A stretch of 64,000 nucleotides of DNA from Chloroflexota bacterium (lineage in GTDB: Bacteria; Chloroflexota; UBA11872), in contig JAPOVQ010000017.1 of assembly GCA_026708035.1 (NCBI GenBank), forward strand, positions 1 to 64,000, written 5' to 3'. The first letter of the stretch is position 1, and each line of letters opens with the position of its first letter. This document shows, in pieces, positions 9,803 to 50,236 of the stretch. The position numbers and the translations under genes were made by a program. The notes beneath the pieces are model-generated. The model saw nothing but the letters and a program-made list of their open reading frames with translations. It was not told the origin of the DNA and searched no databases.

Positions 9803-10891
9803 CTATCGCATGCTGTCGCCGTCGGTGTCGCTGAATCCGACCGCGACTCCCAGCAGGCTCACTACCTCGGTGTTGAGTGTGCGGCGAAGCTCCATCACCC
9901 GGTCATAGACCGCCCGCACCTGCGCCGGCCGGTCCACCACGGCGTCGCGCAGGGGTCCTTCCACGGCGTCCACCGCCATCAACGCGTCCTCAAACTGGCT
10001 GCGCATGCGCTCGTCTGCCGCGGTCGACAGCGGAGTGACCAGGTGTGACACCCCGAGCCCATCGTTGTCGGCGTCTCCCAGGTACACATCGCGCATGCCC
10101 AGCACCGTCGCGCGCAGATCGGCCAGGCCATTGCCGCCGGCCCCGCCGGGGATGGCCGCAAGGTCGGGACCGTCGCCCCGCAGCCCCAACGCAGCCGCCA
10201 ACTGCAGGTCCGTCAGCGTGCGGATGAGGAAGACCTGCGTCCGCACCACTTCGGCGACCGCCGCGCTCTCGAGCATCGAGCTCGATGACCGTCCGGTGAG
10301 AAAGTCCCGGTAAGCGGGGCCGCCGTTCCGCGACACCGTCCACTCCTCGACGATGGCGCCGGTTTCAGACGCAATCACCCCGCCGAGCGCGCGCAAGTAC
10401 TCACAGCGCGCGGACGCGGAATCGGACAGCCGGGACACCGCGTCCGGGTCGAACACGATGTATTCGATCGCCCCAAATCCCCGCTGTGTCGACGCAAGGG
10501 TGTTCCGCACCGCGTCCTCGGTCGTCGCGGGGTTCTCCGCCAACATCCGCTCGATTCGCGCGGGATCGATTGGCGACCAGTCGATCAGCCCGCCGGAGCG
10601 TCGGTCGGCAACCGGACCGAACGCCATTGCCGCCGACCGCAGCCACGCTCCGCGCGCGTCCCGCCACGCCTGGTACGCAGATCGCAGCGTGCTATCCGAG
10701 GGCGCCGCGCACAGCGCCTCAAGCGCCGTCTCGAGGTCGGTGGCCGCCGCGCCGGCCGCCTGGTACGTCGGCACAATTACCTGGTCCGTGAGACTGATGA
10801 GCACCTCGGAGTCGTCGGGAGCGCCCTCGCCGCATCCGACCAACAGGACCATCAAGCCCGCCGCAACCAGTCCCGCCAGCAGCCGCACCAC
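9803..10891 (-). CDS. Imelysin-family (peptidase M75-like) lipoprotein, degenerate motif
   Basis: The 362-residue product starts at GTG 10891 with a signal peptide and lipobox LLVGC (Cys20), so it is probably anchored at the cell surface. The helical body matches imelysin-like proteins, a family linked to iron uptake. The signature GxHxxE is changed: residues 138-143 read GFGAIE, with Gly at the His position. The second imelysin in this operon keeps GWHAIE. The start overlaps the stop of the DUF1111 gene by one base (TAGTG). It is the last gene of a minus-strand operon and is probably a structural or binding member rather than a metal-dependent enzyme. Confidence 0.8.
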   Translation of the reverse strand: MVRLLAGLVAAGLMVLLVGCGEGAPDDSEVLISLTDQVIVPTYQAAGAAATDLETALEALCAAPSDSTLRSAYQAWRDARGAWLRSAAMAFGPVADRRSGGLIDWSPIDPARIERMLAENPATTEDAVRNTLASTQRGFGAIEYIVFDPDAVSRLSDSASARCEYLRALGGVIASETGAIVEEWTVSRNGGPAYRDFLTGRSSSSMLESAAVAEVVRTQVFLIRTLTDLQLAAALGLRGDGPDLAAIPGGAGGNGLADLRATVLGMRDVYLGDADNDGLGVSHLVTPLSTAADERMRSQFEDALMAVDAVEGPLRDAVVDRPAQVRAVYDRVMELRRTLNTEVVSLLGVAVGFSDTDGDSMR

Positions 10892-12300
10892 TACAACGAC
10901 CTCAAGAACTGCAGCAACGCCTCGCGCTCGGCCGCCGTCAGCGCCATGAACCGATCGCGGGCGGCTTGCCCTTCGCCGCCGTGCCAGAGAATCGCCTCCT
11001 CGAGGCTCCGCGCCCGTCCGTCATGCAGGAACATGGTGTGGCCGTTGACGACGTTCACCAGGCCAATGCCCCACAGCGGTGGCGTGCGCCATTCGCGGCC
11101 AGTGGCCACGCCGTCGGGCCGCCCGTCCGCCAGCCCCTCGCCCATGTCGTGGAGCAGCAAGTCCGTGAAGGGAAAGATGGTCTGGTTGCGCAGCGGCTCG
11201 ACGGGGTGGTCGTTCCCGGTGACGTGCCTGGGCGTGTGGCACGCGGCGCAGCCGGTCTGGACGAAGAGCTCCGCGCCCTGTCGCACGCGGGGATCGTCAA
11301 CGTTGCGCATCGCCGGCACGGCCAGCGTTTGCACGTAGAACGCAACCTGAGCGAGTCGCTCGTCCGGAATCTCGGGCGCGCCGCCGTTCGGCGCCGCCGC
11401 GCACGCGTCCTGCGCCGCCGGACAGTTTTCCTCCGGGAACAGGGTCGACGTGATCCCAACGTCACCCAGGAACGCGCCGGCGGCTTGCTGCTCTACCGTG
11501 GGCTGGTTGGCCTTCCACCCGAAGCGCCCCAGCACATCCTCCCCGCGCCGGATGTCCCGCACCATGTTCGGACGCCCGGAAATACCGTCGCCGTCAGCGT
11601 CGTCGGGATCCGCCACGTCCAGAATGCGCTGCGCCGGAATGGCCTCCAGCAAGCCCATGCCGATGACGGCCGAGGCGATGCGGGGCGAGATCATGATCGC
11701 CGGATCGTGCGGACCAAAGGCAAGGTCCAGGATGACGTAGGTCGGCTTGCGCAGCGTGAACGGCGTGCCGTCCGGGTAGACGCCGCCGATGATTTCATAG
11801 CGGATGCCGATCCGCCCCTCCGGCGCGACGCCGATGACGCCACGGTCCTGCAACTGCCCGCCGTAGACCGGGTCGTCAATCGGCCCGTTCGGCCCGGCAA
11901 TACTGAGCCGCAGCAGCAACCCGCGCTCGGGATCTTCGTCATGATCCGGCGGCTTGGCCCGGCCATCGCGGGCGTGACACGACGAGCACGACAGCGCGTT
12001 GAACGTCGGGCCCAGGCCGTCTCGCGCTTCGGTCGACGCCGGGGCCGTGACCCAGTTTTGCGTGAAAAAGCTGTCGCCCACCTCGAAGATGCGCCGCTCC
12101 TCGTTGGCCAGGTTGCGCGCGGAGAGCTCGAACGCGTTGCTGCCGGCGCTGAACGCCGTCGTCGCCCCGCCCAACCGCTCGTCGAAAACCAAATCGAGGT
12201 CAATGCCCGGTCGGTCGGGTCCGCACGAGGCGAGCAACGCGCCCATGAACACGACGGCCGCCAGCCGCCCGAAGGCGCGGCGCGCTCCGACCAGTACCAT
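10891..12300 (-). CDS. Di-haem cytochrome-like lipoprotein (DUF1111, thiol oxidoreductase family)
   Basis: The 469-residue product from ATG 12300 carries a signal peptide with lipobox LLASC (22-26) and two CxxCH haem c motifs, CSSCH (105-109) and CAACH (351-355). The second is in the family's typical C-terminal context, followed by GREWRTPPLWGIG and FLHDGRARSLEEAI. The family (DUF1111, often annotated di-haem oxidoredutase or thiol oxidoreductase) is commonly encoded beside imelysin genes in iron-responsive clusters, exactly as here. It would act outside the membrane, perhaps oxidising or reducing iron. The open frame extends upstream to 12585, but the signal peptide fixes the start. Confidence 0.9.
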   Translation of the reverse strand: MVLVGARRAFGRLAAVVFMGALLASCGPDRPGIDLDLVFDERLGGATTAFSAGSNAFELSARNLANEERRIFEVGDSFFTQNWVTAPASTEARDGLGPTFNALSCSSCHARDGRAKPPDHDEDPERGLLLRLSIAGPNGPIDDPVYGGQLQDRGVIGVAPEGRIGIRYEIIGGVYPDGTPFTLRKPTYVILDLAFGPHDPAIMISPRIASAVIGMGLLEAIPAQRILDVADPDDADGDGISGRPNMVRDIRRGEDVLGRFGWKANQPTVEQQAAGAFLGDVGITSTLFPEENCPAAQDACAAAPNGGAPEIPDERLAQVAFYVQTLAVPAMRNVDDPRVRQGAELFVQTGCAACHTPRHVTGNDHPVEPLRNQTIFPFTDLLLHDMGEGLADGRPDGVATGREWRTPPLWGIGLVNVVNGHTMFLHDGRARSLEEAILWHGGEGQAARDRFMALTAAEREALLQFLRSL

Positions 12301-12353
12301 TGGCCCGGGGTCACCGCACCCAGGCCGCACGCGGCGGCGCCGCCCGCGCCGTC

Positions 12354-13130
12354 CTACCCCGCATGCGACCTGCCGCGAGTGGCGGATGCGGTGACCTTGG
12401 CTGTGAAGTGCCGTTCCACCCGGCCGGTCGCCAGCATGGCGCCGACGAACAGAAGCCAGACGAAAAAGCCGGTTCCCACAATGGGGTGCATGATCGTCGC
12501 GGCATCGATCCAGATGAATTGCATGGCCAGGCCGATGACGGCCGAGACGGGCGCGATGCGCCGGAGCTGCCCGCCAACTCTCCACTGATACCGGGCGGCG
12601 ATGAGCAGGGCCAATCCGGCCGCCACGAAGCCGATCTTTCCAGCGATCCAGTGGATGCCGTCAAGCGCCTCCGCAGCCGTGCCGCCCGTGTCCGGGGCCG
12701 CGGTCGCCCCGACCGCTAGGGCGATCGCGCTGGCGCCCGAAACGCCCAAGCCGACCCCGGCGGTGGCGAGGAGATACGGAACCAGCGGCGTGCCCAGACG
12801 CTGGCGAATGATCCACGTCCGCGGTAGAAACCACGCCCCGGCAACGAGCGCAATCCCCGCCACGACGCGTCCGGCGCCGCCCAAGCCATAGGCGCCGCGC
12901 TGATCGGCGATGGCCGCCAGCGTCTCGGCCAGGGTGTCGTGGTCCGCGGCCGCCGACACGCGTCCGATCACCGAGACGGCCAGGGCCAGCGCGGCCAGAA
13001 CGAGCAGCCGGCCCGCATAGCGCGCAGCCGCGGCCGGCGCCGAACCGGCCGCGGCCGGCAAGGGCACGCGGCCCGCGACCTCAGGCACCGGGCCGCCCCG
13101 TTGCAGCCGCGGTGCCAGGCCACGGACCAC
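12354..13130 (-). CDS. Multi-pass membrane protein, unknown function, in the imelysin operon
   Basis: The 258-residue product starts at GTG 13130. After a Pro/Ala-rich N-terminus it has about six hydrophobic segments, for example RLLVLAALALAVSVIG, GFVAAGLALLIAA and VWLLFVGAMLATG, plus short loops with His (DGIHWIAGK, ATIMHPIVG). It lies between the two imelysin genes, 9 bases downstream of the upstream one, so it is probably in the same iron-related operon. I recognise no family. The His residues near membrane ends might bind haem or metal, but this is speculative. Confidence 0.65.
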   Translation of the reverse strand: MVRGLAPRLQRGGPVPEVAGRVPLPAAAGSAPAAAARYAGRLLVLAALALAVSVIGRVSAAADHDTLAETLAAIADQRGAYGLGGAGRVVAGIALVAGAWFLPRTWIIRQRLGTPLVPYLLATAGVGLGVSGASAIALAVGATAAPDTGGTAAEALDGIHWIAGKIGFVAAGLALLIAARYQWRVGGQLRRIAPVSAVIGLAMQFIWIDAATIMHPIVGTGFFVWLLFVGAMLATGRVERHFTAKVTASATRGRSHAG

Positions 13131-13139
13131 GGCCCTCCA

Positions 13140-14294
13140 CTAGCTCACGCTGATGGTGATGCCGAGCGCCTGCGCCGCGCCGACGATCGTGTCCGTCTGC
13201 TCTTCCAGAGCGACGATGGCGTCGAGCACGGCCTTCCGCCCGTCGTCCGCGTCGGACACGCCCTCGAGCAGGTGCTGATCAAACGGCGCCTCGATCGCCT
13301 TCGTCAGGTTCACGCTCCGCTCGATCTGCGCCGCCAGCTGCTCGGCAATCTCCGCGTCCTGGGCCTCGATCAGGTCCATGATCCCGGGGCCGGCCACCTG
13401 GCCGAAGTTGCCCAGAAACACCATCTGAATCCCCAGGGCGTTGCCCACGATGTCGGCGGTGGTGTTGTCGGAGAAGCAGGAGTGCTCGTCCTCCTGGGAC
13501 CGCGCCTCGTAGGCCACGGTCATGCGCTCGCCGGCCAGTTCGCCGCGGCTCAGCTCACCGATGCCGGTGATGATTCGACGCAGAGCCTCGTCCGTGTCGA
13601 CCGAGGTGAACTCGGCGCGGTAGTTGTCACCGCGACCGGGCGCCCACGCGTCCACCATGTCCTGCAGATGCTGCAGCAGCAGGTCCGACGCAACCGCCAG
13701 ATACGTGGCGCGGCGGTCGGCGTTCGCGGCCGTGGTGAAGTCTTCGATGGACCGTTCGCCCGGTCCGGCCACGCTCAGGTCCTGGCCCCACAGCAAGAAC
13801 TCGATGGCGTGCCAGCCCGTCGACACATTCGCCTCGCCGCCCTCTTCGTTCAGCGACACCAGCAGATCGGCGTTGATGACCGGAAAGGTCTCTGCGTCAT
13901 TGATGATGCCGGCGCTCGGATTGTCGACGACGTAGTCGATGTACGCCTCATCCAGCGGCCAGGCGTTGATCAGCCCTTCGGGACCATCCTCCGGATGGTC
14001 GATGGGACCATCGTAGAAGCGGAACGCTTCGGTCGGCCCATAGTCGTCGCGGGCGATCAGCCACATGCGCTTGGCGGCTTCGAGATGCGCCGCCGTGGGC
14101 TCTGCCAGGAATCGGTCAATGGCCCGGTCCATGGCCTGCGCTGAGCTCAGGCTCTGCGCATACAGGTGGTGGACGCCGTTGGCGTAGTTCGTCACCACGT
14201 CCTGCTTCAGCTCGGTGGTGGGTCCGCTTTCGCCGCAGGCTGCCAGCAGCCCGGCCATGAGACTCGCCACCACGACCAGAACGATTCTTCGCAC
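13140..14294 (-). CDS. Imelysin-family (peptidase M75-like) lipoprotein
   Basis: The 384-residue product has a signal peptide with lipobox LLAAC (Cys20) and the intact imelysin motif GWHAIEFLLWG (160-170, GxHxxE). Further family features include EDEHSCFSDNT near residue 270. Imelysin-like proteins are surface or periplasmic iron-related proteins; peptidase activity has been claimed for some and is doubtful for others. It is the first gene of an operon continuing with a membrane protein, a DUF1111 di-haem protein and a second imelysin. Its promoter at 14379-14406 and two dyads between promoter and start suggest iron-dependent repression. Confidence 0.9.
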   Translation of the reverse strand: MRRIVLVVVASLMAGLLAACGESGPTTELKQDVVTNYANGVHHLYAQSLSSAQAMDRAIDRFLAEPTAAHLEAAKRMWLIARDDYGPTEAFRFYDGPIDHPEDGPEGLINAWPLDEAYIDYVVDNPSAGIINDAETFPVINADLLVSLNEEGGEANVSTGWHAIEFLLWGQDLSVAGPGERSIEDFTTAANADRRATYLAVASDLLLQHLQDMVDAWAPGRGDNYRAEFTSVDTDEALRRIITGIGELSRGELAGERMTVAYEARSQEDEHSCFSDNTTADIVGNALGIQMVFLGNFGQVAGPGIMDLIEAQDAEIAEQLAAQIERSVNLTKAIEAPFDQHLLEGVSDADDGRKAVLDAIVALEEQTDTIVGAAQALGITISVS

Positions 14295-14410: not shown

Positions 14411-17400
14411 GTGCCCACGGTCGCGGGCCGCAATCTCCATCGCCTCGATCCACGTCGGCGCGTTGCCGCCCACGCCCCCGCCCGCGAGACAATTCGGACC
14501 CCGCTCGCGCAGGGACAGCCCTCATGGACGCCCAACTGCTGGACTCGCCTTCATCGAATGGGCGGTCGCGCGTTTCGTAGGGCGCGCACACCGGGCCGGC
14601 GCTGGCATGCTGGGGGCGCTACCCGCACGAGACGACGCTTGCCTCACCGCTGGTCTTCCCCGCGCCTGAACCTGCCCGGGCTCGGTCATCGACTCCGAGG
14701 CCGCCGAACGTCCAGGATCACGAGGGTCGTCGTTGCCATCGTCGGCCTCGCGCTGCTCGGCGGGGTCACAGCCGCTCTCCTGGGCTGGGCCTCCCTCACC
14801 GAGCGCGGCGTGACCTTCGGTCTCGCCGATCTGCCCGAGCTGCGTCATGCGGACGCGCCCGCCATCGGCGCCAACACCTTCCTGCATCGCGAAGCGGACC
14901 CCGCCAAGGTCGAGCGCGAGCTGGAGCTCCTGGCCAGCGCGGGCATCGGCCTCATCCGCCAGGAGATTCTGTGGGTCGAAATCGAGCCTCACGCCAAGGG
15001 TGTCTACATCGACAACCACGGCGAAGATTCCTGGGCCAAATACGACCGCATCGTCGATCTGGCGCAGGGCTTCGGCATCGAGGTGCTCGCCCGACTCGAC
15101 CGCCCCCCGCCGTGGGCCACGCCCGGCTTCAACCCGCAGGAAAACACGTCGATCCAGATGCCGCCCGCGGATTTCACCGACTTCGCCGACTTTGCCGCGG
15201 CGGTTGCCGCGCGCTACCGAGGCAAAGTCAAGTACTTCCAGATCTGGAACGAGCCCAACCTCTTCGGCGAGTGGGGCGGCCGGCCGCCGGACCCCGCCGC
15301 CTACCTCGACATGCTGCGCGAGGTCGGCGCCGCCGTGCGGGCCGCCAACCCCGACGCCGTCATCGTGCTGGCCGGGCTGGCGCCCACAATCGAAACCGGC
15401 CCCGACAACCTCAGCGACCTGCTGTTCCTGGAGCGGCTCTATCAGCTGGGCGCTAGGGGCGCGTTCGACATCGCCTCCAGCATGTCCTATGGGCTGTTCA
15501 CCGGCCCGCGCGATCCCCGCATCGACGCGTCCCGGACGAACCTTCCTCGCGCCGTGCTCTGGCGCGAGATCATGGAATCCCACGGCGACGCCGGCACGCC
15601 GATCTGGGCTTCGGAGTATGGCTGGATGTCGCTGCCCCCCGGCTGGCAGGGCGACCAGGGTATTTGGGGCAATCACCCGGCAGCAGACCAGGCGGCCTGG
15701 ACCGTGGACGGCATCCGGCGAGCACGTGAGCAATGGCCCTGGCTGCCCACCATCATGATCTGGGCCGCGCGCTGGCCGCACGACACCCACCCGGACGACC
15801 CCACGCCGTTCTTCGGGCTGCTCACAAGGGACTTGCAGCCGCGCGACCACATGCTGGCTCTGGAACGGGCCTACGCCGACGCCCCAAGCGCCGGCATCGG
15901 CCTGCACCAGGAAACCCACGCCGCCTTCACCTTCGACGGACCATGGCCGCGGGTGCCCAGCGACTGGGCGTCGCTCGGATTCCATCGCCAGACCGGGCAG
16001 CCCGACGCACGGCTGGAGCTGCGATTCGAGGGCGACTCGGTCGGCCTGCTCACTCGGCGCGGCCCCGACATGGGACAGGTGCGCGTGCGCATCGACGGCC
16101 ACAGCGCCCTGGCCGACGCCCTGCCGCGCAACGCGGCCGGCGAGGCGATCCTGAATCTCTATGCCCCCGAGGTGGAGCGTCTGGCGCGCATTCCCATCGC
16201 GCGCGGGCTGTCCCAAGGCCCGCACGTGCTCGAATTGACGGTGATGGCCGAGCGCGACCCGCGATCGTCGGGGGGACTGGTGATCGCCGACGGCGCGCTG
16301 GTAGGCAACTCGCGGCCGCTCTGGCCCTACGCCGCCGTCGCCGCCACCTGGGCGCTGGCGCTGGCCGTGCTCGTCTGGGCCGCTGGCGGCCGCGCCGTTC
16401 GGGCTGCGGCGCGGATTCCGCGAGTCGAACTCCTGGACCGGCGTCTGCCGCTCGGACTGCACGCCGGCGAGGTGGCCGCCGCCGCCCTGGCCGTGGTGTT
16501 CGCCCTGCTGCCCGACGGCACGCCGGCGTCCGCCTGGACCCTGGTTCGGCTGGTGCTGGCGGCGGCGCTGGGCGCGCTGGCGCTGGCGCGCCCGCGTCAC
16601 ATAGCCATCGCGGCCGTCGCCGCCATCCCCTTCGTCGGCGTGATCGCGCGCACCGGCATCTACGACCGTCCGGTCGGCGAGACGCTCATCGTCATTCTGG
16701 TCATCGCCTGGGTGGCGCGCGCGCTGGCGCAGCGCCGCTGGCCGCTGCAACGCAGCGAAGACGCGGACGGACCAGAGCAAGCCGCGTCATCGCCGAGTCC
16801 GACTCCCTTTCCCCTTGAGGGAGAGGGCCGGCGGGAGGGGTTCATGCTCCGGCTATTCCGGCGTCCGGCCCCCTCTCCCCTTGCGGGAGAGGGCGGGGGT
16901 GAGGGGTTCCCCCTTCCGTCACTCCCGCGCAGGCGGGAATCCACCGTCGTTTACCGCTGGCTAGCGAGCCAGAGTGGGTGGCTCTGGCTCGCGCTCGCCG
17001 TCATCGCCGCCGGCGTCGCGGCCACGTTGGCGGCGGACTTCCCGCGGGTCGCCTGGCGCGACCTGCGCACCGTCATCGTCGAACCCGCGCTGCTGTTCCT
17101 GGTCCTGCTCAGCGTGATGCGCGACCGCGCCGACGCGCAGCGGCTCGGCGTGGCGCTGGTGCTCGGGGCGGTGGTGTCGGCAGTCGTGGCGCTGGCGCTG
17201 ATCCCCGCAGGCGCCGTCGTCACCGATGCTGGACCGCCGCGGCTGCGCGGCTTGTTCGGTTCGCCCAACAACCTGGCGCTCATCCTGGAGCGGGCACTGC
17301 CCCTGACCGTTGGACTGGCACTCGCCGTCGCCTACCGCCGGCGCCTGCGCGTCACCGCTTGGGCCGCCGCGGCGGTGCTGGTGGCGGTGCTGGTGCTCAC

Positions 17401-18115
17401 CTTCAGCCGCGGCGCCTGGATCGGCGCGCTGGCCGGACTCGCCGTGGCGCTGATACCCATCTGGCGGCGCCAGGGCAGAGGCGAGGGCGAACCAGGACCC
17501 AGTCTTTCCGGCGGAAGCCGGAATCCAGTCCGCGTCCTCCGTCGCATGCGTACCGCAACGCCTCTGCTCGTGGCGGGTCTCATGGCTGCCGGCCTGCTGG
17601 CCGCAATTGTCACCACCGGCGGCGACAACCTCGCCCGACTCCTGCGTCCCTCGGACGCCGCCACCGCCGCGCGCCCGCTGCTCTGGGACTCCGCCTGGCG
17701 CATGATCGCCGACAACCCCGTCCTCGGCGTCGGCCCGGACAACTTCCTCTACCACTACCCGGACTACATCCGGCCCGAAGCCTGGGCCGAGCCCAACATC
17801 TCGCACGCGCACAACATCGCCCTCGACACCTGGCTCACGCTGGGTATTCCCGGTCTCGTGGTCCTGGTCGGCGTGCTAGCCGCCTACGCCCGCACCTGGC
17901 GCGCCGCGCTGCGGCGCGCCGGCGGCAGCCGGGCGCTCGTCTACGGCCTCGGCGGCGCCATGCTGGCGACCCTCGTCCACGGCATCGTGGACAGCAGCCT
18001 CTATCTCCCCGAGCTCGCCGCTACCTTTTGGGTCATCGTCGCGGCCACCGTCATCCTGGCCGCATCCCCGTTCGTCATTCCGGCGAAGGCCGGAATCCAG
18101 TCCGGTCGATTCTAG
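14411..18115 (+). CDS. Fusion: membrane-anchored glycosidase-like domain plus O-antigen-ligase-like (Wzy) domain
   Basis: The 1234-residue frame starts at GTG 14411 (ATG 14558 is an alternative; the Arg-rich first 100 residues look doubtful). A membrane anchor (about 105-127) precedes a GH39/GH5-like barrel with acid/base IWNEPN (278-283, Glu281) and nucleophile IWASEYGW (Glu402). A beta-rich segment follows (470-630), then ten or so membrane helices (about 640-1220). These carry ligase/polymerase features GLFGSPNNLAL, FSRGAWIG, GVGPDNF and SHAHNIALDTWLTLG. Residues about 797-845, 1032-1039 and 1222-1234 are translated dispersed repeats. The protein would act at the outer membrane face on exported glycan. 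It is divergent from the imelysin operon. Confidence 0.8.
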   Translation: MPTVAGRNLHRLDPRRRVAAHAPARETIRTPLAQGQPSWTPNCWTRLHRMGGRAFRRARTPGRRWHAGGATRTRRRLPHRWSSPRLNLPGLGHRLRGRRTSRITRVVVAIVGLALLGGVTAALLGWASLTERGVTFGLADLPELRHADAPAIGANTFLHREADPAKVERELELLASAGIGLIRQEILWVEIEPHAKGVYIDNHGEDSWAKYDRIVDLAQGFGIEVLARLDRPPPWATPGFNPQENTSIQMPPADFTDFADFAAAVAARYRGKVKYFQIWNEPNLFGEWGGRPPDPAAYLDMLREVGAAVRAANPDAVIVLAGLAPTIETGPDNLSDLLFLERLYQLGARGAFDIASSMSYGLFTGPRDPRIDASRTNLPRAVLWREIMESHGDAGTPIWASEYGWMSLPPGWQGDQGIWGNHPAADQAAWTVDGIRRAREQWPWLPTIMIWAARWPHDTHPDDPTPFFGLLTRDLQPRDHMLALERAYADAPSAGIGLHQETHAAFTFDGPWPRVPSDWASLGFHRQTGQPDARLELRFEGDSVGLLTRRGPDMGQVRVRIDGHSALADALPRNAAGEAILNLYAPEVERLARIPIARGLSQGPHVLELTVMAERDPRSSGGLVIADGALVGNSRPLWPYAAVAATWALALAVLVWAAGGRAVRAAARIPRVELLDRRLPLGLHAGEVAAAALAVVFALLPDGTPASAWTLVRLVLAAALGALALARPRHIAIAAVAAIPFVGVIARTGIYDRPVGETLIVILVIAWVARALAQRRWPLQRSEDADGPEQAASSPSPTPFPLEGEGRREGFMLRLFRRPAPSPLAGEGGGEGFPLPSLPRRRESTVVYRWLASQSGWLWLALAVIAAGVAATLAADFPRVAWRDLRTVIVEPALLFLVLLSVMRDRADAQRLGVALVLGAVVSAVVALALIPAGAVVTDAGPPRLRGLFGSPNNLALILERALPLTVGLALAVAYRRRLRVTAWAAAAVLVAVLVLTFSRGAWIGALAGLAVALIPIWRRQGRGEGEPGPSLSGGSRNPVRVLRRMRTATPLLVAGLMAAGLLAAIVTTGGDNLARLLRPSDAATAARPLLWDSAWRMIADNPVLGVGPDNFLYHYPDYIRPEAWAEPNISHAHNIALDTWLTLGIPGLVVLVGVLAAYARTWRAALRRAGGSRALVYGLGGAMLATLVHGIVDSSLYLPELAATFWVIVAATVILAASPFVIPAKAGIQSGRF
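16804..16944. repeat. Three dispersed repeats inside the glycosidase-ligase gene
   Basis: Two family A units (16804-16842 and 16869-16908) and one family B unit (16918-16944, ACTCCCGCGC and GCGGGAAT arms) lie back to back inside the coding frame. Their lengths and spacing keep the frame open and encode peptides such as PFPLEGEG, PSPLAGEG and LPRRREST. They fall in a loop between two membrane segments. Confidence 0.85.
17505..17528. repeat. Family B repeat inside the ligase domain
   Basis: TTCCGGCGGAAGCCGGAATCC, the usual family B hairpin, lies in frame and encodes SGGSRNPV in a cytosolic or periplasmic loop. Confidence 0.75.
18074..18101. repeat. Family B repeat forming the C-terminus of the fusion protein
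   Basis: GTCATTCCGGCGAAGGCCGG, followed by AATCCAG, supplies the last coding residues IPAKAGIQ; the stop is 11 bases later. The repeat has probably replaced or extended the original C-terminus. Confidence 0.75.
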
Positions 18116-18192: not shown

Positions 18193-18732
18193 CTAAAGGA
18201 CGCGCAGCCGCTCAAAGGCGCGACTGAGCGAACCTCCGTACGTAGACAACCAGGCAGGCGGGTCGTCAGCAACCACGCTTAGCCAAAATGTATCCGTGCC
18301 ACCCGCGCCAGTGTGCTGCGGCGTGTGGCCGATCACATGGTTGTAGAGGACGGCTTTAGGAATCACCCAGCACTGCGCGTCAAACGGTGCGATTCCTAGG
18401 CACACGAGAATGTCGTAGTCCTGGTCGCGAATCTGCTGGAATTTAAACTGCCCGCTTGCCCAAAGCGTCGAAAACTTGATCTCTATCCTCCGGCCCTGGA
18501 TCACTCGATCCGCTTCGCTGTCGCCGCTGGGGCCAACGCTCAAATCTTTTGCAGCGCACCAGCCAGCCACAAGTTGCTCACCGATCTTGCCGACTTGGCG
18601 GGAAGGGCGAGCCTTGATCCACCCAAACGGACTTCGAGACCACTCGAGGTTTTCCTTTTCGTAATCGCCCCGAAGCATCTCGGATATACCAGCCAGCATC
18701 CTCACTTCGGGGTCAGTTATTTCGTTCTTCAT
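18193..18732 (-). CDS. Putative restriction endonuclease, PD-(D/E)xK type
   Basis: The 179-residue product from ATG 18732 begins 8 bases after the methyltransferase stop. It has an ordered PD-(D/E)xK-like core: Glu51 in KIGEQLVAGW, Asp75 in DSEADRV, and Glu84-x-Lys86 in RRIEIKFS. A segment with Gln and Asp residues follows (FQQIRDQDYDILVCLG), as in type II restriction enzymes. No name or recognition site can be given. By eye the gene is less GC-rich than its neighbours, consistent with transfer of a restriction-modification cassette. A solitary nuclease of other function is less likely given the adjacent methyltransferase. Confidence 0.7.
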   Translation of the reverse strand: MKNEITDPEVRMLAGISEMLRGDYEKENLEWSRSPFGWIKARPSRQVGKIGEQLVAGWCAAKDLSVGPSGDSEADRVIQGRRIEIKFSTLWASGQFKFQQIRDQDYDILVCLGIAPFDAQCWVIPKAVLYNHVIGHTPQHTGAGGTDTFWLSVVADDPPAWLSTYGGSLSRAFERLRVL

Positions 18733-18740
18733 TTCGCGGT

Positions 18741-19622
18741 TTACTCCAAGAGAGATGCCTGCCGCGGCCCGGTGCGATAGGGCGCATCGTCGAACTCCAC
18801 GAACTCGACATCGGCGTAGTCCGCGAAGCGTCGCGCCATCACGGCCAGCGCCTCCGGATTGTTGTCGATCAGCACGAACCGTCGCCCCAGCGCGTGGGCC
18901 GCCTCGCCCACCGTGCCGCTCCCGGCGAAGAAGTCCATCACCGTGCCACCGGGCGGGCATGAGGCCTGAATGATGCGCCGCGCGATGCCCACCGGCTTCT
19001 GCGTCGGGTAGCCGGTGCGCTCCTTGCCATTCGTGGGCACGATGGTGTGCCACCAGGTGTCCGTGGGCAGCTTGCCCCGCGCCGCCTTTTCCGGACCGAC
19101 CAGACCCGGCGCCATGTAGGGAATCCGCTCCACCTCGTCCGTGTCGAAGTAGTAGCGCTCCGGCTCCTTGGCGTAGGCCAGGATGTTGTCGTGCTTCGGG
19201 GGCCATTTCTTCTTGGTGCGGCCGCCGTAGTCGTAGGCCCAGATGATCTCGTTGAGAAAACCCTCGCGCCCGAAGATCCCGTCCAGCAGCACCTTGGCGT
19301 AGTGCACCTCGCGGTAGTCGAGATGCAGATACAGCGACCCGGTTGCCGCCAGCACGCGATGCGCCTCGAGCATCCGCGGCTCCAGAAACCCGAGATAGTC
19401 GTCGTAGGCGTCGTCGAAAGCCCGCGTGGCGAGCTGCTCGGTGCGGTAGCGCTTGCCCTGGAAGCCCGTTCGGTCGCCGTCGGGGTCGCGCACCGTTCGC
19501 AGCTGCGTGCGCGACTGGGCGCGGCCCGTATTGAACGGCGGATCGACGTAGATCAGGTCGATGCCGCCCGACGGCATGTCCCGCAGGAGCGGCAGGTTGT
19601 CGCCGAAGTACACGCGGTTCAT
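18741..19622 (-). CDS. DNA methyltransferase (N4-cytosine/N6-adenine type, beta-like order)
   Basis: The 293-residue product from ATG 19622 carries the catalytic motif DPPF (27-30) near the N-terminus and the AdoMet-binding motif FAGSGT (232-237) near the C-terminus. This order is typical of beta-class amino-methyltransferases. Other family segments are present (YLHLDYREVHY, TQKPVGIARRII, VLIDNNPEAL). It methylates a base within a DNA target and would protect the host from the endonuclease encoded immediately downstream. The frame is open upstream into a dispersed repeat, which is not taken as coding. DPPF, rather than DPPY, is a common variant. Confidence 0.9.
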   Translation of the reverse strand: MNRVYFGDNLPLLRDMPSGGIDLIYVDPPFNTGRAQSRTQLRTVRDPDGDRTGFQGKRYRTEQLATRAFDDAYDDYLGFLEPRMLEAHRVLAATGSLYLHLDYREVHYAKVLLDGIFGREGFLNEIIWAYDYGGRTKKKWPPKHDNILAYAKEPERYYFDTDEVERIPYMAPGLVGPEKAARGKLPTDTWWHTIVPTNGKERTGYPTQKPVGIARRIIQASCPPGGTVMDFFAGSGTVGEAAHALGRRFVLIDNNPEALAVMARRFADYADVEFVEFDDAPYRTGPRQASLLE

Positions 19623-19702
19623 TGCCAGGCGCGCCGGACATCGGGGGCCGGCCCCCTCGCCCTTGATCGGCAAGCGCTTGCCGTCGCCCACGACTGCTCC
19701 GG

Positions 19703-49544: not shown

Positions 49545-50236
49545 TCCGACTCCCTCTCCCTTGGGGAGAGGGTTGGGGCGAGGGGGAATGCGTGGAACGA
49601 TTTCAGCCGCTCCGCCAAAAAGTCCGCCGCCAGTCTTCCCCTCATCCTGTCCTTCTCCCACAAGGGGAGAAGGGACTCGATGGCACGCCCAGTGGGCATG
49701 GGCGGCTCGTGTGCAGGCCGATGCCCTAGCCGCTGATGGAGGTCGCCCGCGTCGATCGGTCCGAGTCCGACTCCCTCTCCCTTGGGGAGAGGGCCGGGGT
49801 GAGGGGATTGGCCCCATCCGTCACGCCCGCGGAGAGCCTGCCCCCTACTCGATGCGGGGCGGGAATCCGTCCGGGTCCGGCCCCCTCTCCCCTTGCGGGA
49901 GAGGGTTGGAGTGAGGGGTCCCAAAAGGCCTCTGTCCGTAATCCCCGCGTCTGAGTGGCTCTCCCCGTGAGAGCGTCCGGGTCCCTTTCCCTTGGGTCCG
50001 ACCCACCCTCTTTCGGGCCCGGCTCCCTCTCCCTTGGGGAGAGGGCCGGGGTGAGGGGATTGACCCCATCCGTCATTCCCGCCCCATCCGTCATTCCCGC
50101 GAAGAGCCCGCCCCGTACTCGATGCGGGGTGGGAATGTGTCCGGGTCCGGCCCCCTCTCCCCTTGCGGGAGAGGGTTGGGGTGAGGGGTTTCCAATCCCC
50201 CCGTCCGTCATTCCGGCGAATGCCGGAATCCAGCGA
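49545..50236. repeat. Dense cluster of dispersed repeats upstream of ileS
   Basis: Within the 738-base gap I count at least six family A units (about 49549-49586, 49639-49680, 49768-49807, 49879-49919, 50020-50060, 50150-50190) in both orientations and several family B units (about 50083-50145 and 50208-50235). Two units include a TACTCGATGCGGGG insert. No gene is seen. Any ileS promoter must lie within or between the repeats. Confidence 0.85.

What the first reader, a model, noticed from the sequence alone, without database searches (positions are those of the whole stretch)
16804..18101. Dispersed intergenic repeats translated inside a membrane protein
Three repeats (16804-16944), one at 17505 and one at 18074 belong to the same families that otherwise fill intergenic gaps, yet they keep the frame open and supply about 60 residues, including the C-terminus. 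This implies recent repeat mobility and repeat-driven protein change.
Basis: seen in the sequence. Interest (0 to 1): 0.65.

Follow-up and report, generated by a model that had tools for sequence, protein, structure and literature searches.

The report
REP repeats inserted inside membrane protein
Short palindromic repeats that normally sit between genes have been inserted, always in frame, into floppy loops and the tail of a sugar-polymer ligase in a Chloroflexota bacterium, and close relatives carry different sets or none; this is a clear new case of a known but seldom documented process.

Summary
The 1,234-codon ORF 14411-18115 encodes an extracellular glycosidase-like domain fused to a WaaL/Wzy-type O-antigen ligase. 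It holds two hairpin repeats of family A (CCCTCTCCC-loop-GGGAGAGGG) and three CGTC-type REPs (family B). Both families are otherwise almost wholly intergenic: 34 of 40 strict copies in the window, and 115 of 132 over 604 kb, lie outside predicted genes.

Congeners settle the history. The main insert (site 1) is absent from G001, G004 and the sister genus, whose empty loop is conserved. It is present in different versions in the window genome, G003, G005 and L032. Site 2, an additional site 0 and the C-terminus also vary. Every internal length difference is a multiple of three. The host gene is under purifying selection (Ka/Ks 0.13-0.18); the inserts are nearly unconstrained (0.49-0.85). An AlphaFold model is disordered exactly at the inserts. 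A PfkB kinase and a GH127 enzyme show the same pattern.

Most likely this is neutral, selection-filtered insertion and array growth of REP-like elements. The mover is unknown; no Y1/RAYT transposase was found. Intragenic CGTC REPs are already described (PMC3733652). New here are the phylum, the multi-species series and a second family. "Recent mobility" is only partly right; functional change is unshown.

The parts
14411..18115 (+). Host gene: GH5/cellulase-like domain fused to WaaL/Wzy-type O-antigen ligase (start codon uncertain, 14411 or 14639)
   Evidence: Pfam PF00150 and PF04932; orthologues in 5 congeners and sister genus; fold match to WaaL 7tpg
16401..16469 (+). Site 0: empty here, but carries an in-frame CGTC REP (+36 nt) in G001 and REP plus half-REP array (+90 nt) in L032
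   Evidence: DNA alignment
16798..16847 (+). Family A repeat 1 (stem 16805-16813 / 16819-16827), read as PTPFPLEGEGRREGF
16864..16913 (+). Family A repeat 2 (stem 16871-16879 / 16885-16893), 66 nt after repeat 1, read as PAPSPLAGEGGGEGF
16917..16943 (+). Family B (CGTC-type REP), read as PSLPRRREST
16741..16989 (+). Site 1 insert region: 249 nt here, 237 G005, 315 G003, 291 L032, 30 in G001 and G004 (empty)
   Evidence: AlphaFold pLDDT below 50 over model residues 157-228
17501..17527 (+). Site 2: family B REP (AGTC tag here, CGTC in G005 and L032), read as SLSGGSRNP; absent in G003 and G004
   Evidence: pLDDT below 50 at 405-419
18073..18099 (+). C-terminal family B REP, read as FVIPAKAGIQ; orthologues have a family C repeat (VIPSAARNL) or family D repeat at the same place
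   Evidence: pLDDT below 50 at 601-614

Best explanation
The gene is a working O-antigen-ligase-type membrane protein. Its cytoplasmic loops and C-terminal tail have taken up REP-like palindromic repeats of two families, CGTC-1 type and an uncatalogued CCCTCTCCC-hairpin type. The repeats multiply as dispersed elements, mostly between genes. Insertions that keep the frame and fall in structurally free loops survive; others are removed by selection. Once a loop is occupied, units are added or lost in 66-nt (22-residue) or similar in-frame steps by recombination or slippage, and filled or empty alleles may move between species by homologous recombination. Shown: insertion relative to a conserved empty state, frame retention, relaxed constraint in the inserts, predicted disorder, and recurrence in other genes. 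Inferred: neutrality, cytoplasmic location, and the copying mechanism (no transposase identified).
For: Empty sites conserved with the sister genus: PPVR loop in G001 and G004. Length differences at sites 0, 1 and 2 are all multiples of 3 across six species, while repeat-associated length differences between genes are 13/8/7 for mod 0/1/2. Copies are strongly depleted from coding DNA: 14 of 132 inside genes that cover about 88%. Ka/Ks is 0.13-0.18 in the host parts against 0.49-0.85 in the site-1 insert. AlphaFold disorder coincides with the three insert sites. Independent recurrence: a PfkB kinase with 0, 1, 2 or more repeats in one loop, a GH127 enzyme with the repeat in four of six congeners, and a zincin C-terminus extended only in this genome. 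Fast turnover: 28 of 31 intergenic clusters differ in length from G003. Precedent: intragenic CGTC REPs (PMC3733652) and RPEs (PMC10969869).
Against: No target duplication or clean insertion boundary was found. The site-1 insert brings non-repeat spacer as well, so it is not simple single-element insertion. G003 (filled) and G004 (empty) are sisters (support 0.96), so one gain on the tree does not fit without loss, recombination or repeated insertion. No expression data. Two of three sampled contigs (C1 and C6, 400 kb) had no convincing in-gene copy, so the process is rare.
Confidence: 0.82

Rival explanations
1. The insertions are adaptive: repeat-encoded, proline/glycine/arginine-rich peptides give the ligase and other sugar enzymes new loops that are favoured by selection.
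For: Several of the affected genes act on sugars (ligase/glycosidase, PfkB kinase, GH127). The same reading frame (APSPLxGEGxGEG) is used in the ligase and GH127. More copies than expected in this one gene, 5 against 0.76 expected, although three of them form one block.
Against: Insert Ka/Ks of 0.49-0.85 fits drift. The three B copies use three different frames, so there is no shared peptide. Predicted disorder. Viable empty alleles in congeners.
Confidence: 0.1
2. The repeats are kept in the gene for their DNA or RNA function (mRNA hairpins, gyrase or protein binding, attenuation), and translation is incidental.
For: In-gene copies still fold as hairpins much as intergenic copies do. REPs have reported DNA and RNA roles (PMC3733652).
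Against: Presence, number and family differ among close species at every site, so no fixed hairpin is maintained. Family A folds are no better than shuffled controls.
Confidence: 0.06
3. Old protein sequence that resembles the repeats by chance, or an assembly or binning artefact.
For: High G+C genomes have many open frames; the named relatives are metagenome-assembled.
Against: Reversed-sequence controls give almost no copies. Five other assemblies show the same gene with other repeat sets in frame. Empty loops match the sister genus.
Confidence: 0.02

Closest known systems
CGTC-1 REPs, including Neisseria dRS3 and Rickettsia RPE-6, and intragenic REPs (Di Nocera et al. 2013, PMC3733652)
   Same: CGTC tag, 8-bp stem, 4-nt loop, CCA tail; mostly intergenic; some inside genes, clusters there coding 43-82 residues; no dedicated transposase known
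   Different: Chloroflexota host; inserted here together with a second hairpin family; gain and loss resolved across six congeners at one gene; found in a membrane ligase, a PfkB kinase and GH127 rather than mainly replication and repair genes
Rickettsia palindromic elements (RPE-1 and relatives), as reviewed in PMC10969869
   Same: Dispersed palindromes inserted in frame in functional protein genes, expected to lie where structure tolerates them
   Different: RPEs of about 150 bp each encode one conserved peptide; here units are 27-50 nt and are read in several frames
GTAG REPs / REPINs with RAYT transposases
   Same: Short palindromic dispersed elements, intergenic, clustered
   Different: No GTAG tag, and no Y1_Tnp/RAYT gene in any of 19 family genomes

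Membership tests
CGTC-1 REP | CGTC (or TGTC/CCTC) unpaired tag at one end | tested here: met
   16917-16920 and 18073-18076 are CGTC; 17501-17504 is AGTC here but CGTC at the same place in G005 and L032
CGTC-1 REP | 8-bp stem beginning with A-T pairs, 4-nt loop | tested here: met
   18077-18084 / GAAG / 18089-18096 is perfect; the other two in-gene copies have one stem mismatch each
CGTC-1 REP | CCA tail | tested here: met
   16941-16943, 17525-17527, 18097-18099
CGTC-1 REP | High copy number, mainly intergenic | tested here: met
   96 exact cores in this genome, control 0; most strict copies outside genes
CGTC-1 REP | Head-to-head dimers predominate | not tested
   Dimer orientation was not tabulated
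Tagged (CGTC or GTAG) REP, for the family A repeat | Unpaired CGTC or GTAG tag at one end | tested here: not met
   No CGTC or GTAG tag seen; 9-bp CCCTCTCCC stem followed by GGGGTGAGGG; family A is therefore not filed as a tagged REP
Rickettsia palindromic element | About 150-bp element with one conserved encoded peptide | tested here: not met
   27-nt and about 45-nt units; three B copies in three frames
Rickettsia palindromic element | In-frame insertion in functional genes at structurally tolerant positions | tested here: met
   works like an RPE without being one
REPIN/RAYT system | Y1 tyrosine transposase gene in the genome | tested here: not met
   PF01797: 0 of 19 family genomes, controls positive
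MITE | Target-site duplication and terminal inverted repeats matching an IS | tested here: inconclusive
   No duplication visible, but flanking intergenic DNA is too diverged; IS ends not compared
WaaL/Wzy O-antigen ligase (host protein) | Wzy_C domain and WaaL-like fold | tested here: met
   PF04932 E 4e-24; Foldseek 7tpg E 1.6e-6

The most novel reading that the evidence does not exclude
In this Chloroflexota genus, two unrelated palindromic families spread without any Y1/RAYT transposase, and certain cytoplasmic loops of sugar-polymer enzymes act as recurrent landing pads where in-frame arrays grow and are exchanged between species. That would be a frame-respecting route of protein length evolution by an unknown mover, possibly adaptive.
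Probability: 0.15. Interest if true: 0.65.

Novelty: new member of a known kind. Interest (0 to 1): 0.42.

Why it matters
In-frame insertion of palindromic repeats into proteins has been documented mainly in Rickettsia and in scattered REP-rich genomes. Here six congeners plus a sister genus give filled, empty and remodelled alleles at several sites of one gene and in two further enzymes. The origin, selection and possible function of repeat-encoded residues therefore become directly testable. It is also a practical warning: peptides such as VIPAKAGIQ, SPLAGEGxGEG and PSLPRRREST in predicted proteins can be translated repeats. Finally, it raises the open question of what moves CGTC-type REPs when no RAYT gene is present.

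Tried and rejected
Rfam search of the window: no family. RAYT/Y1 transposase as mover: absent in 19 genomes. A looser repeat pattern (two mismatches per arm) was abandoned because the reversed control gave 62-81 hits. Target-site duplications: none visible (a first attempt failed). Plasmid search for the repeat block gave only short family-A matches in three proteobacterial plasmids. Candidate in-gene copies at C17:78746 (a weak two-mismatch match with no length difference in G003), C1:130594 and C6:91089 were judged chance matches. The copy at 49548 lies upstream of the conserved start of its gene.

Full report
What is there. The window is contig C17 of a 3.46-Mb genome in 36 contigs; its named close relatives are Chloroflexota metagenome assemblies. 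ORF 14411-18115 (+) encodes a cellulase-like glycosidase domain (PF00150) followed by an O-antigen ligase domain (PF04932). A predicted model of the membrane part has pTM 0.77, and its best PDB match is the WaaL ligase 7tpg.

The repeats. Family A is a 9-bp hairpin CCCTCTCCC-loop-GGGAGAGGG followed by GGGGTGAGGG. Family B is CGTC + 8-bp stem + 4-nt loop + CCA, which is the published definition of CGTC-1 REPs (PMC3733652). Two A copies and three B copies lie in the gene. Controls: exact cores of both families have 0 matches when the pattern is read backwards. In strict scans 132 copies were found in 604 kb of this genome, with 4 in the reversed sequence.

Distribution. Copies are mainly intergenic: 115 of 132 outside predicted genes although genes cover about 88%. 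In the window 34 of 40 are outside genes and 5 of the other 6 are in this gene. Two other contig stretches (400 kb, 54 copies) have no convincing in-gene copy. The exact CGTC core counts 82-229 in each of the six genomes of the genus but 0-3 in 13 genomes of the sister genus. Family A is more widespread and patchy, exact in 71 of 301 Chloroflexota genomes.

Comparison of orthologues. Protein and DNA alignments of six congeners and the sister genus show four variable places. Site 1 (16741-16989) is 249 nt here, 237 in G005, 315 in G003 (three A units spaced 66 nt), 291 in L032 and 30 nt in G001 and G004; the short form encodes PPVR, close to the sister genus. Site 2 (17501-17527) is absent in G003 and G004. 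Site 0 (about 16430) is empty here but holds a CGTC REP in G001 and L032. The C-terminus is family B here, family C (GTCATTCCGAGC..., read VIPSAARNL) in G003, G004, G005 and L032, and family D in G001. All length differences at the three internal sites are multiples of three. Between genes, 28 of 31 repeat clusters differ in length between this genome and G003, with no significant bias to multiples of three (13, 8, 7), and 13 have no repeat in G003.

Selection and structure. Ka/Ks of the conserved host parts is 0.13-0.18, and of the site-1 insert 0.49-0.85. In the AlphaFold model the residues below pLDDT 50 are 157-228, 405-419 and 601-614, apart from residues 1-16 and a short stretch at 124-130. 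These three segments are site 1, site 2 and the C-terminal repeat. A hydropathy count with the positive-inside rule puts sites 0, 1, 2 and the C-terminus on the cytoplasmic side, and the conserved loop with the SHAHN motif outside (inference).

Recurrence. A PfkB-family kinase at C17:82627-83715 (-) has no repeat in G001 or the sister genus, one in G003, two in G004 and several in this genome, G005 and G002. All are in one loop, and the measured lengths are all multiples of three. A GH127 enzyme carries one A repeat in four of six congeners. A zincin-like protein is extended at its C-terminus by an A repeat only in this genome.

History and mechanism. The gene tree joins G003 and G004 (0.96), yet G003 is filled and G004 empty. 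G004's flanks match G003 best on both sides, while its empty core is identical over 15 nt to that of G001. Hence the insert is not a simple single gain; recombination between lineages, lineage sorting or repeated insertion is needed. This is unresolved. [quoted passage not shown] I infer copying of hairpin elements by an unknown route, survival only when in frame and in a disordered loop, and later unit gain or loss within the array.

Verdict. Observation confirmed; interpretation partly supported. It works like Rickettsia palindromic elements, and family B belongs with intragenic CGTC REPs. Family A is not a member of the tagged REP families by the features tested, and I found no paper that describes it. 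The finding is well supported, of moderate novelty, and useful as a multi-species series.

Noticed in passing
G000:C17:82627-83715 (L073:18627-19715), minus strand: PfkB-family sugar kinase with a loop holding 3 or more in-frame repeats here and 0 to many in congeners.
   Followed up: yes
L135-L140 (GH127 orthologues); G000:C9:45694-47640: Beta-L-arabinofuranosidase-like GH127 with an in-frame family A repeat (PAPSPLEGEGWGEG) in four of six congeners.
   Followed up: yes
window 18193-18732, minus strand: Small ORF without Pfam match between the ligase gene and an N6/N4 DNA methylase gene (18741-19691); in four of five congeners the methylase-like sequence follows the ligase gene directly, so this looks like a local insertion.
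   Followed up: partly
L032 (JAJDUK010000074.1): Contig labelled as an Alphaproteobacteria MAG carries this Chloroflexota gene with about 80% identity: probably misbinned or mislabelled.
   Followed up: no
L032 site 0; window 50063-50104: Tandem half-REPs with a period of about 18 nt (CGTCATTCCCGCCCnnnn), which would also expand in frame.
   Followed up: no
G000:C2:1943-2238 and C6:49071-49339: Near-tandem family A arrays with about 84-nt and 118-nt spacing.
   Followed up: no
window 9803-14294: Two imelysin (M75) genes flank a di-haem oxidoreductase gene: a likely metal-uptake cluster.
   Followed up: no
G008 orthologue (L070): The GH domain in G008 appears to contain a large internal tandem duplication (about 190 residues).
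   Followed up: no
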